Assembly: GCA_003162995.1 (NCBI GenBank)
Contig: PLUZ01000384.1
Coordinates: 11,557-21,869 of the forward strand
DNA: 10,313 nt
Direction: 5' to 3'
Source of the DNA: Methylocapsa sp.
GTDB taxonomy: Bacteria > Pseudomonadota > Alphaproteobacteria > Rhizobiales > Beijerinckiaceae
A model generated the notes under the pieces. The model ran no database searches. It had not been told where the DNA came from and saw only the letters and a list, made by a program, of their open reading frames with translations. Positions 1,772 through 3,291 of the stretch are shown one piece after another. Position 1 is the first letter of the stretch. Each line of letters starts with the position of its first letter. The position numbers were made by a program, and so were the translations under genes.

Positions 1772-1772
1772 C

Positions 1773-1868
1773 CATGATCGCTCTAAATCGAAGCGCTCAT
1801 AGTCCCTATCTGTTTGTTTTGTCGCATGATCTTAACCCAAAAGTCTGCAACTTTTTGGATCATGCTCT
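1773..1868. repeat. Dispersed palindromic repeat, copy A
   Basis: A 96-base element closely related to 6275-6373. Ungapped over the first 80 bases, 58 match, with blocks such as CATGATCGCT, TTTGTTTTGT and TCTGCAACT shared. Its core (1824-1865) folds as an imperfect hairpin: GCATGAT pairs with ATCATGC, and CCAAAAGT pairs with ACTTTTTGG with one bulged T. The pattern resembles the abundant intergenic palindromes of rhizobial genomes that read GCATGATC ... GGATCATGC; that link is from memory, not from a search. It lies directly upstream of the minus-strand PPDK regulator gene. Confidence 0.75.
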
Positions 1869-2005
1869 CACTTCAAGGGACAGAAGGGGAGAAAAGTGAA
1901 TAACCGGTGCCCCGCCCCGCCATCAACCATTTTATGGGAAAAACGAAGAAGATTCGTCCACCGGCATTGATGGCTTAGTAATAAAATGGCAACCACTGTG
2001 AATGG

Positions 2006-2014
2006 AGGGGATAG
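2006..2014 (-). promoter_or_regulatory. DnaA-box-like element 1
   Basis: Reads CTATCCCCT on the minus strand, 6 of 9 with TTATCCACA. On its own this is weak. It matters because it differs by one base from the element at 2051-2059 in the same candidate origin. Confidence 0.3.
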
Positions 2015-2050
2015 CGACCTTTCCTTTGAATTCAATTCCCGCCAACTTGG

Positions 2051-2059
2051 CTATCCTCT
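2051..2059 (+). promoter_or_regulatory. DnaA-box-like element 2
   Basis: Reads CTATCCTCT on the plus strand, 6 of 9 with TTATCCACA. It overlaps the left arm (2052-2061) of a perfect 10-base inverted repeat whose right arm carries element 3. Confidence 0.35.
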
Positions 2060-2067
2060 TTCAACAA

Positions 2068-2082
2068 TTAACGAAAAGTTAA
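2068..2082. promoter_or_regulatory. CtrA-type binding box (perfect TTAA-N7-TTAA)
   Basis: TTAA, seven bases (CGAAAAG), TTAA: an exact match to the CtrA consensus of alphaproteobacteria. In Caulobacter such boxes in the origin let CtrA repress replication initiation, and CtrA also controls promoters. Here the box lies in the hemE-side half of the candidate origin, between the arms of the 2052/2122 inverted repeat, and touches the base of the hairpin at 2081-2106. Confidence 0.6.
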
Positions 2083-2106
2083 CGCGCCTCTTGCTGAGGC
2101 GGCGTT
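2081..2106. repeat. Hairpin in the origin region/hemE upstream region
   Basis: AACGC-GCCTC, loop TTGCT, GAGGC-G-GCGTT: ten base pairs with one bulged G. There is no T run after it on either strand, and no gene ends nearby, so it is not a convincing intrinsic terminator. It could be a structured origin element or lie in a long hemE leader. Confidence 0.6.
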
Positions 2107-2114
2107 GTTCATAA

Positions 2115-2123
2115 AGAGGATAA
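2115..2123 (-). promoter_or_regulatory. DnaA-box-like element 3
   Basis: Reads TTATCCTCT on the minus strand, 7 of 9 with TTATCCACA, the best DnaA-like match in the gap outside the dispersed repeat. It overlaps the right arm (2113-2122) of the 10-base inverted repeat. Confidence 0.4.
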
Positions 2124-2186
2124 GCAGGAAACCCGAAGCTAGCTTGTGTGGAGCGGCGAATAAGCCTAATTCGCTTGCTAATCAGA

Positions 2187-2201
2187 CTAAGACCTATTTA
2201 A
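2187..2201. promoter_or_regulatory. Second CtrA-type box (CTAA-N7-TTAA)
   Basis: CTAA, seven bases (GACCTAT), TTAA: 7 of 8 defined positions of the CtrA consensus with correct spacing. It lies inside the AT-rich stretch 35-50 bases before hemE, where a hemE promoter would be expected. In Caulobacter a CtrA box likewise overlaps the hemE promoter in the origin. Confidence 0.45.
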
Positions 2202-2235
2202 GAAAGATTCTTAGATTTTATAGAGGGTTTTGGAT

Positions 2236-3291
2236 TTGGAAGGCCTGGCACATGTCCAAACAAAACCCTTCCTTAAAGTCTTTGACGGCGAGGCCTGTAT
2301 TCCGCCGCCTGTCTGGCTGATGCGGCAAGCTGGCCGTTATCTGCCGGAATATCAGGCCATCCGCGCCACAGCTCCTTCTTTCCTCGATTTTTGCTACACA
2401 CCAGCACTCGCGGCGGAAGCAACACTGCAACCTGTGCGGCGCTTCGGATTCGATGCGGCAATTCTGTTCAGCGATATTCTGGTTGTTCCGGACGCGCTTG
2501 GCCAAAAAGTCAGTTTTGAGCCAAGCGAAGGGCCGAAACTCGATCCTCTTGTGACACCCGAGGCTTTCGGCAAGCTGAACGAAAAGATCGACCGCAATCG
2601 GCTTTCCCCGGTTTTCGAGACAATCGAGCGGGTCAAACAAAACCTGCCGGGTGAAACCGCTCTGATCGGCTTTTGCGGCGCTCCTTGGACAGTTGCTTGC
2701 TATATGATCGCCGGCAAAAGCACGCCTGACCAAGCGGCAGCACGTCTTTTTGCCTATAGTCACCGCGATCTGTTTCAACGCCTCATCGACCGGCTTGTCC
2801 AAGCGTCGATCGATTATCTTTCCTGGCAGATTGATGCTGGTGTCGAGGCTGTGCAAATCTTCGACACTTGGGCGGGGGTCCTGCCTTTCGCCGAGTTTGA
2901 GCGTTGGTGTACGGCTCCGGTCGCGGCAATCATTGCCGGGCTACGCCTTCGCCATAAGGATGCCCGCGTCATCGGCTTTCCGAAAGGAGCGGGGCAGCAT
3001 TTAAAAGATTATGTGGCGAGCACACGCGTCGATGCGCTTTCGCTCGACAGCACGATTGATCCGCAATGGGCCGCGAAAACCTTCGATCGGGGGTTGGTGT
3101 TGCAAGGCAATCTCGATCCCCTGGCACTTGCCGCCGGCGGCGCCGCGCTGGAAACGGGGATGCACGGAATTCTTTCGGCTTTTCGCGGAAGGCCGCATAT
3201 TTTTAATCTTGGCCACGGCATTCTGCCCCAGACCCCGGTGCATCATGTCACGCTTATGCTTGATTTGCTTCGCCGAGGCGCGACTGAATGA
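2236..3291 (+). CDS. hemE: Uroporphyrinogen decarboxylase
   Basis: Removes four carboxyl groups from uroporphyrinogen III to give coproporphyrinogen III in cytoplasmic heme synthesis. Seen (from TTG 2236, 351 residues, normal length): the first signature PPVWLMRQAGRYLPEY with RQAGR at 30-34, Asp80 in FSDILV matching the catalytic aspartate, the second signature GFCGAPWT (145-152), and GHGI near the end. The start is uncertain. The frame is open only from 2224, and offers TTG 2230 or TTG 2236; 2236 has AGAGGG 8 bases ahead. ATG 2252 has a stronger GGAAGG 8 bases ahead but is one frame off, and a one-base change near 2258-2268 would give an ordinary HemE N-terminus. The stop overlaps hemJ as ATGA. 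The gene sits beside the candidate origin, with a CtrA-type box upstream. Confidence 0.95.
   Translation: MEGLAHVQTKPFLKVFDGEACIPPPVWLMRQAGRYLPEYQAIRATAPSFLDFCYTPALAAEATLQPVRRFGFDAAILFSDILVVPDALGQKVSFEPSEGPKLDPLVTPEAFGKLNEKIDRNRLSPVFETIERVKQNLPGETALIGFCGAPWTVACYMIAGKSTPDQAAARLFAYSHRDLFQRLIDRLVQASIDYLSWQIDAGVEAVQIFDTWAGVLPFAEFERWCTAPVAAIIAGLRLRHKDARVIGFPKGAGQHLKDYVASTRVDALSLDSTIDPQWAAKTFDRGLVLQGNLDPLALAAGGAALETGMHGILSAFRGRPHIFNLGHGILPQTPVHHVTLMLDLLRRGATE

What the first reader, a model, noticed from the sequence alone, without database searches (positions are those of the whole stretch)
1772..2229. Candidate chromosomal replication origin
The gap is flanked by hemE and the PPDK-regulator (RP001/DUF299) gene, the pair that brackets the mapped chromosomal origins of Caulobacter crescentus and Sinorhizobium meliloti and the predicted one of Rickettsia. 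The maf-aroE continuation on one side and rho on the other fit the same neighbourhood. The gap has CtrA-type boxes, DnaA-like elements, GANTC sites, inverted repeats and a 72% AT stretch next to hemE. No perfect DnaA box is visible, so this origin may use diverged sites.
Basis: partly seen in the sequence, partly recalled or inferred. Interest (0 to 1): 0.8.

Follow-up and report, generated by a model that had tools for sequence, protein, structure and literature searches.

The report
Chromosome replication origin beside hemE
This gap is very probably the place where this alphaproteobacterium starts copying its chromosome, an origin of the Caulobacter kind, and it carries a conserved binding site for the cell-cycle regulator CtrA that turns up in many related origins.

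Summary
The window's genome is a 584-contig draft, so I tested relatives. In five single-contig relatives the GC-skew minimum falls at this gap (at the gap in a 400 kb zoom of one; within 1/20 of the chromosome in four), with dnaA over 1.2 Mb away in three. In five relatives parS-type sites lie 10-58 kb from it. Divergent hemE/ppsR is kept in 15 of 15 genus genomes, and five of the gap's six most conserved 9-mers are DnaA-box-like. The window has no perfect DnaA box, as stated.

Corrections: the large hairpin (1824-1865) is a dispersed repeat (35 pattern matches in this genome); GANTC is not enriched; there is one exact CtrA box.

Addition: that box (TTAA-N7-TTAA, 2068-2082) is conserved in place. 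Of 69 distinct alphaproteobacterial hemE-ppsR gaps, 27 hold it; other half-site spacings occur in 0-4 each; 26 of 31 sites lie 140-260 bp before hemE. CtrA boxes at oriC therefore look common, although S. meliloti and Brucella are reported to lack CtrA binding there. Binding is untested. A new member of a known kind.

The parts
1866..2229 (.). candidate oriC proper: the part of the hemE-ppsR gap that aligns with the relatives' gaps
   Evidence: alignment of 15 genus members plus G023; skew minimum at or near this gap in five single-contig relatives
905..1771 (-). ppsR, PPDK regulator (Kinase-PPPase, DUF299/COG1806), left flank
   Evidence: PF03618, 300 bits; beside hemE in 15 of 15 genus genomes
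2230..3291 (+). hemE, uroporphyrinogen decarboxylase, right flank
   Evidence: PF01208, 375 bits
2068..2082 (.). CtrA box TTAACGAAAAGTTAA (TTAA-N7-TTAA, exact)
   Evidence: exact at the same aligned place in 8 of 16 gaps; 27 of 69 gaps hold one somewhere
1895..1903 (-). DnaA-like box TTATTCACT (1 mismatch to TTATNCACA); most conserved 9-mer of the gap (0.88)
1954..1965 (+). DnaA-like (weak) element TCGTCCACCGGC; consensus of the 16 gaps here TCATCCACA
1997..2005 (-). DnaA-like box CCATTCACA (2 mismatches); TGTG core kept in all 16 aligned gaps
2106..2114 (-). diverged DnaA-like box TTATGAACA (1 mismatch); consensus of the 16 gaps here is TGTGAATAA, a perfect match
2115..2123 (-). DnaA-like box TTATCCTCT (2 mismatches); several relatives have GTGGATAAG or CGGATAAG
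2144..2152 (-). DnaA-like (weak) element TTGTGTGGA; relatives such as ATTGTGGAAA or CTTGTGCGAA
2163..2171 (+). conserved element AGCCTAATT, not a clear DnaA box, binding protein unknown
   Evidence: conservation 0.83
2180..2229 (.). AT-rich stretch (72% AT) next to hemE, presumed unwinding region
   Evidence: unwinding role inferred
2206..2210 (.). GATTC (GANTC) in the conserved AAGATTCTT (conservation 0.76)
1951..1955 (.). second GANTC site, not conserved by eye in the alignment
1824..1865 (.). dispersed palindromic repeat GCATGATC...GATCATGC, an insert in this species' gap and not part of the origin
   Evidence: 35 pattern matches in G000, 3-54 in six relatives; hairpin z -3.4; in none of the other 26 gaps

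Best explanation
The gap is the oriC of the main chromosome of a Hyphomicrobiales bacterium close to Methylocapsa. DnaA, made from a distant gene, binds an array of weak, diverged DnaA boxes on both sides of a CtrA box, melts the AT-rich stretch next to hemE, and loads the replisome. Phosphorylated CtrA bound at 2068-2082 probably hinders DnaA assembly and/or sets transcription of hemE, as in Caulobacter. Shown here by sequence: position of the origin in relatives, conserved gene order, conserved boxes, CtrA box at a conserved place and spacing. Inferred: DnaA and CtrA binding, the unwinding site, repression by CtrA, and that the window's own species behaves as its relatives do.
For: GC skew: in G001, of 20 stretches of 20 kb around the chromosome, 10 of 11 from 0.31 to 2.40 Mb are negative and 6 of 6 from 2.59 to 3.65 Mb positive, and 20 contiguous stretches put the cumulative minimum at 2,594,700, inside the gap (left mean -0.0126, right +0.0093). 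Two-arm fits in G010, G008, G009 and G023 put the origin at boundary 0, 1, 0 and 19 of 20, where 0 is the gap. dnaA is 1.97 Mb (G001), 1.27 Mb (G008) and about 1.5 Mb (G009) away. The two nearest parS-type palindromes lie 10-58 kb from the gap in G008, G009, G011, G014 and G023. hemE and ppsR are divergent neighbours in 15 of 15 genus genomes and in 27 of the first 30 hemE loci. Five of the six most conserved 9-mers of the gap are DnaA-like (1895, 1996, 2116, 1957, 2144; the sixth, 2163, is not clearly so); 4 of 2000 letter-permuted motifs have as many <=2-mismatch sites in the consensus. CtrA (422 bits, over the NCBIfam cut-off of 350) and GcrA are encoded in the window's genome. Its DnaA matches chain 1j1v_A (E 6.8e-23; E. 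coli domain IV by recall) and keeps GGRDHTTV.
Against: The window's own genome could not be tested for skew (584 contigs), and local skew over the window is flat. Skew resolution in four relatives is about 1/20 of the chromosome, and in G010 and G023 dnaA is about 60 and 168 kb from the gap, so those two do not separate the candidates. In the G001 zoom a shallower second dip lies near 2.71 Mb. The gap is not unique by motif: in about 130 kb of the same genome 0.7% of overlapping windows have as high a DnaA-box score; in G001 and G010 the gap has only one site with <=1 mismatch, as 9% and 8% of windows do; and in G001 another place (L072, about 180 kb from the gap) has as high a score and also an exact CtrA box. 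The exact IHF consensus WATCAN5WTR is absent. No dif-like site was found with an E. coli-type pattern (0 of 7 genomes).
Confidence: 0.92

Rival explanations
1. The gap is only a divergent promoter region for hemE and ppsR; the CtrA box and DnaA-like sites regulate transcription, and the true origin is elsewhere within some tens of kb.
For: Divergent genes need promoters here; CtrA and DnaA are also transcription regulators; the skew in four of five genomes cannot place the origin better than about 1/20 of a chromosome; motif counts alone do not single out the gap.
Against: In the G001 zoom the cumulative minimum falls at the gap. No sigma-70 type promoter was matched in 1700-2300 (a weak test). 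Several DnaA-like boxes are kept across the genus. The same gap is the mapped origin in Caulobacter (PMC1914354, passages).
Confidence: 0.06
2. The origin is beside dnaA, as in many bacteria, and hemE synteny is incidental.
For: dnaA lies about 60 kb (G010) and 168 kb (G023) from the gap, so in these two the skew alone cannot choose.
Against: In G001, G008 and G009 dnaA is 1.3-2.0 Mb from the gap; the half-against-half skew contrast at the boundary nearest dnaA is -0.006 (G008) and 0.000 (G009) against +0.023 and +0.026 at the gap; in G001 the sampled stretches on both sides of dnaA are negative.
Confidence: 0.02
3. The TTAA-N7-TTAA site is a binding site of another regulator or a by-product of AT-rich sequence, with no CtrA role at the origin.
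For: No binding data; 42 of 69 gaps lack an exact site; the gaps are related by descent; AT-rich windows of the same genome hold exact sites at 4-8%; the S. meliloti origin has no CtrA motif and is not bound (PMC4433202, passages), and Brucella CtrA does not bind its origin (PMC2877005, passages).
Against: 27 of 69 gaps at N7 against 0-4 at each of the twenty other spacings from N0 to N20; 0-3 for each of the other fifteen palindromic tetramers at N7; among all sixteen A/T-only tetramers the next is AAAA with 12; 26 of 31 sites lie 140-260 bp before the hemE match against 9.5 if uniform, an interval chosen after seeing the positions. The spacer is less conserved than the halves. CtrA is encoded.
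Confidence: 0.15

Closest known systems
Caulobacter crescentus Cori (between hemE and CC0001/COG1806)
   Same: Same flanking genes, similar size (404 bp in PMC1914354 Table 1, seen as a passage), low-affinity DnaA boxes (PMC4468827, passages), TTAA-N7-TTAA CtrA box, AT-rich stretch.
   Different: One exact CtrA box rather than five; no exact IHF consensus; a species-specific dispersed repeat inserted on the ppsR side. The two sequences were not aligned here.
Sinorhizobium meliloti and Brucella chromosomal origins (order Hyphomicrobiales, by recall)
   Same: Same order; hemE neighbourhood for S. meliloti (recalled, not seen in a call).
   Different: S. [quoted passage not shown] Brucella CtrA does not bind its origin; here a CtrA box is conserved.
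Rickettsia and Wolbachia predicted origins (hemE-COG1806 or hemE-COG1253)
   Same: hemE flank, predicted DnaA and CtrA boxes (PMC1914354, passages); so CtrA boxes had been predicted in origins outside Caulobacter.
   Different: That paper calls GC skew insufficient for several alphaproteobacteria; here skew and parS-type sites of relatives agree.
Methylocystis sp. SC2 predicted oriC (PMC3794950)
   Same: A methanotroph (same order by recall) with an oriC predicted away from its dnaA genes (passages).
   Different: There GC skew showed no clear inversion and the region was called by Ori-Finder; here the skew of relatives is clear.
Hyphomonas neptunium origin
   Same: CtrA ChIP signal next to the chromosomal origin (PMC7200025, passages): experimental precedent outside Caulobacter.
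   Different: Different lineage; no binding data here.

Membership tests
hemE-type (Caulobacter-like) alphaproteobacterial oriC | intergenic gap between hemE and the COG1806/DUF299 gene | tested here: met
hemE-type (Caulobacter-like) alphaproteobacterial oriC | replication origin by strand asymmetry (cumulative GC-skew minimum) | tested here: met
   met in five single-contig relatives; not testable in the window's own draft genome
hemE-type (Caulobacter-like) alphaproteobacterial oriC | cluster of DnaA boxes | tested here: met
   weak boxes only: none perfect, two with <=1 mismatch, eight with <=2; conserved elements in the genus; the cluster is not unique in the genome by score
hemE-type (Caulobacter-like) alphaproteobacterial oriC | CtrA boxes TTAA-N7-TTAA (in some members only) | tested here: met
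   one exact, position conserved
hemE-type (Caulobacter-like) alphaproteobacterial oriC | AT content above genome average, AT-rich stretch | tested here: met
   gap GC 0.445; 72% AT in 2180-2229; most 500-base windows of the window sequence have GC 0.50-0.63
hemE-type (Caulobacter-like) alphaproteobacterial oriC | IHF site (accessory) | tested here: inconclusive
   exact WATCAN5WTR absent; one 1-mismatch match to a related consensus
hemE-type (Caulobacter-like) alphaproteobacterial oriC | autonomous replication / marker-frequency peak | not testable with these tools
   needs experiment
dnaA-adjacent oriC | skew minimum beside dnaA | tested here: not met
   G001, G008, G009: dnaA 1.3-2.0 Mb from the gap where the minimum falls; G010 and G023 cannot tell

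The most novel reading that the evidence does not exclude
A CtrA box at a preferred place (about 140-260 bp before hemE) is a common and probably old part of the alphaproteobacterial hemE-type origin, kept in several families of Hyphomicrobiales and in other alphaproteobacterial lineages. Direct CtrA control of replication start would then be widespread, with S. meliloti and Brucella as losses, rather than a Caulobacter speciality.
Probability: 0.5. Interest if true: 0.6.

Novelty: new member of a known kind. Interest (0 to 1): 0.42.

Why it matters
It places the origin for a genus near Methylocapsa, where a published prediction for another methanotroph (Methylocystis SC2) had no clear skew support. 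It also gives a sequence-level case, with spacing, letter and position controls, that CtrA boxes belong to many alphaproteobacterial origins, against a review statement that they are not seen beyond Caulobacter and possibly Rickettsia. That can be tested directly by ChIP in culturable relatives.

Tried and rejected
Rejected as origin features: the hairpin 1824-1865 (dispersed repeat) and the GANTC count (chance level). Led nowhere: Rfam over the window (0 matches), tRNA scan (0), sigma-70 promoter scan (0 found; the same scan lists 4 terminator-like sites against 1.0 in shuffles, not followed up), E. coli-type dif pattern with up to 3 mismatches (0 of 7 genomes). A generic DnaA-box cluster score does not single out the gap; in G001 the 9 windows listed there 'with CtrA exact too' are one other place, L072, about 180 kb from the gap. 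The idea that diverged boxes reflect a changed DnaA: the signature GGRDHTTV is kept, so I do not favour it. parS-type sites could not be used as a marker in G000, G001 and G010, because a dispersed palindrome with the same core is spread over those genomes.

Rows dropped before counts: L021, L028 and L029 have no ppsR match within the 1.5 kb flank held. In one search, 28 of 90 loci lacked a match to one of the two genes in the DNA held, and 6 of 62 were not divergent within 2 kb. In one search, 5 of 20 had no ppsR in the stretch fetched (one, L255, does hold an exact CtrA box but is not counted; L257 is only 124 bases). Gaps run from the first residue of ppsR aligned to the first of hemE aligned, so their ends and the distances to hemE are off by up to some tens of bases. 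The 69 gaps are related by descent and are not independent events.

Full report
What is there. The window is G000:C142:11557-21869 of a 4.36 Mb draft in 584 contigs. Its genes are aroE (fragment), maf and ppsR on the minus strand, then hemE, a UPF0093 gene and rho on the plus strand. The gap between ppsR and hemE is 1772-2229. The organism is therefore close to Methylocapsa; the genus name for the window itself is inferred.

Is it the origin? The draft could not be tested for skew, and skew within the window is flat, so I used relatives. In G001 (one contig, 4.15 Mb) 20 samples of 20 kb give negative GC skew in 10 of 11 stretches from 0.31 to 2.40 Mb (the exception is +0.007 at 1.55 Mb) and positive skew in 6 of 6 from 2.59 to 3.65 Mb; the other three (3.84, 4.04 and 0.10 Mb) are -0.004, +0.007 and +0.006. 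Twenty contiguous 20 kb stretches around hemE put the cumulative minimum at 2,594,700, inside the gap; a shallower dip lies near 2.71 Mb. Two-arm fits to 20 samples each in G010, G008, G009 and G023, laid out so that boundary 0 is the gap, choose boundaries 0, 1, 0 and 19 (R2 0.71, 0.58, 0.51, 0.72). dnaA lies at 0.41 Mb in G001 (hemE 2.59 Mb), 4.53 Mb in G008 (hemE 0.56 of 5.24 Mb) and 0.9 kb in G009 (hemE 2.77 of 4.31 Mb), far from the minimum in these three; in G010 and G023 it is about 60 and 168 kb from the gap and cannot be told apart by skew.

Independent marker. The palindrome TGTTTCACGTGAAACA (recalled as the parS consensus) occurs, with up to 2 mismatches, at two places in G008, G009 and G014, three in G023 and six in G011. 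The two nearest sites are 10 and 12 kb (G008), 12 and 15 kb (G014), 11 and 13 kb (G023), 12 and 14 kb (G011) and 56 and 58 kb (G009) from the gap. The other four sites of G011 lie 28 kb and more away and the third of G023 243 kb away. In G000, G001 and G010 the core belongs to a dispersed palindrome and is no use as a marker.

Conservation. hemE and ppsR are divergent neighbours in 15 of 15 genus genomes and in 27 of the 30 hemE loci first fetched. In the alignment of 16 gaps (15 genus members and G023) the six most conserved 9-mers are AGTGAATAA (1895), CTGTGAATG (1996), AGCCTAATT (2163), GAGGATAAG (2116), TCCACCGGC (1957) and TTGTGTGGA (2144); apart from the one at 2163 they read in several relatives as better DnaA boxes, such as AGTGGATAA, CTGTGGATG, GTGGATAAG and TTGTGGAAA. 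In the majority consensus 12 sites are within 2 mismatches of TTATNCACA and are more conserved than the rest (0.693 against 0.597, p 0.004); 4 of 2000 letter-permuted motifs have as many. The rank correlation over all positions is weak (rho -0.10, p 0.053). By count of <=1-mismatch sites the gaps of G009 and G023 (4 each) exceed all background windows, those of G000 and G008 (2 each) exceed all but 1.1% and 0.7%, but those of G001 and G010 (1 each) are matched by 9% and 8%. DnaA of the window's genome keeps the GGRDHTTV signature, so weak boxes rather than a changed DnaA are the likelier reading; Caulobacter's origin also has low-affinity boxes (PMC4468827, passages).

CtrA box. 2068-2082 is an exact TTAA-N7-TTAA. 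It is exact at the same aligned place in 8 of 16 gaps (G000, G001, G010, G014, G002, G007, G009, G023) and one letter off in G006 and G008; the other six lack it. The spacer is less conserved (0.58) than the halves (0.78, 0.72). Windows with an exact site make up 0.05-0.36% of the background in six genomes, 0-8% of the AT-rich background. In 56 gaps from the genus, family, order and named genome contigs, 21 have an exact site against 0.96 expected from dinucleotide shuffles. In a further 15 gaps, 14 from other families of the order and one from the window's family, fetched after that result was seen, 6 have it and no other spacing from N3 to N12 exceeds 1. Together, without two duplicates, 27 of 69 gaps hold it; each of the twenty other spacings from N0 to N20 occurs in 0-4 gaps, each of the fifteen other palindromic tetramers at N7 in 0-3, and among the other A/T-only tetramers the highest are AAAA (12) and TTTT (8). 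26 of 31 sites lie 140-260 bp before the hemE match against 9.5 if uniform; this interval was chosen after seeing the positions. CtrA and GcrA are encoded in the window's genome.

Published background. Caulobacter's origin lies between hemE and COG1806 with five CtrA sites, and CtrA boxes were predicted in Wolbachia, Rickettsia and other origins (PMC1914354, passages). [quoted passage not shown] S. meliloti's origin lacks CtrA motifs and binding (PMC4433202, passages), and Brucella CtrA does not bind the origin (PMC2877005, passages). CtrA binds next to the origin of Hyphomonas neptunium (PMC7200025, passages). Ori-Finder 2022 marks CtrA sites in predicted origins in general, even in a genome without CtrA (PMC10225481, passages). 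I saw no survey of CtrA boxes in Hyphomicrobiales origins in the listings; most subscription papers are not in that library, and of the listed papers I saw passages of eight only.

How it most likely works. Shown: location in relatives, conserved boxes, CtrA-box place and spacing. Inferred: DnaA nucleates on the better boxes (such as 1895), spreads over weak ones, and unwinds the AT-rich stretch at 2180-2229; CtrA~P on 2068-2082 blocks this or sets transcription of hemE. A purely transcriptional role of the CtrA box is not excluded.

Verdict. An ordinary, well-supported alphaproteobacterial origin, with a broader CtrA signal that deserves an experiment.

Noticed in passing
G000, G001, G004, G006, G010, G012 genome-wide (e.g. 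L033:1271, L040:17603, L238:2303): A dispersed palindrome of about 42 bp, consensus AATCGTACCAAA..GTTTCACGTGAAAC..TTTGGTACGATT in 15 copies aligned (14 of G001, 1 of G000), holds the core of the chromosomal partition site parS (consensus recalled). Pattern counts with up to 3 mismatches: 33, 63, 28, 44, 16 and 48 in these six genomes, 0-1 in the other ten of 16 examined. Whether ParB binds it is unknown.
   Followed up: partly
window 1824-1865; G000 and relatives genome-wide: A second dispersed palindrome of the GCATGATCTTATCCAAAAAGTCTGCAACTTTTTGGGATCATGC type: 35 pattern matches in G000, 21 in G006, 54 in G023, 3-18 in four others; some matches of this loose pattern look unrelated.
   Followed up: partly
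G001:C1:412243: In G001 dnaA sits almost opposite the origin, near the presumed terminus (skew changes from plus to minus between about 0.1 and 0.3 Mb), although in G010 it is about 60 kb from the origin.
   Followed up: no
L072:50-640 (G001, about 2.775 Mb): A place about 180 kb from the G001 origin has an exact TTAA-N7-TTAA and a DnaA-box score at least as high as the origin gap; which gene it precedes was not looked at.
   Followed up: no
L162, L164, L166, L176, L183, L209: In these more distant alphaproteobacteria (L183 and L209 Micavibrio-like by isolate name or title) ppsR begins 3.8-4.6 kb from hemE, so other DNA lies between the two flanks.
   Followed up: no
G031:C6: 27 DnaA-domain matches, one strong and the rest weak and many identical in score, which suggests many copies of an IstB-like transposon ATPase (name recalled). 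L021 of G031 is also one of the three loci without ppsR beside hemE.
   Followed up: no
window 2163-2171: AGCCTAATT is among the three most conserved 9-mers of the gap and is not a clear DnaA box; its binding protein is unknown.
   Followed up: no
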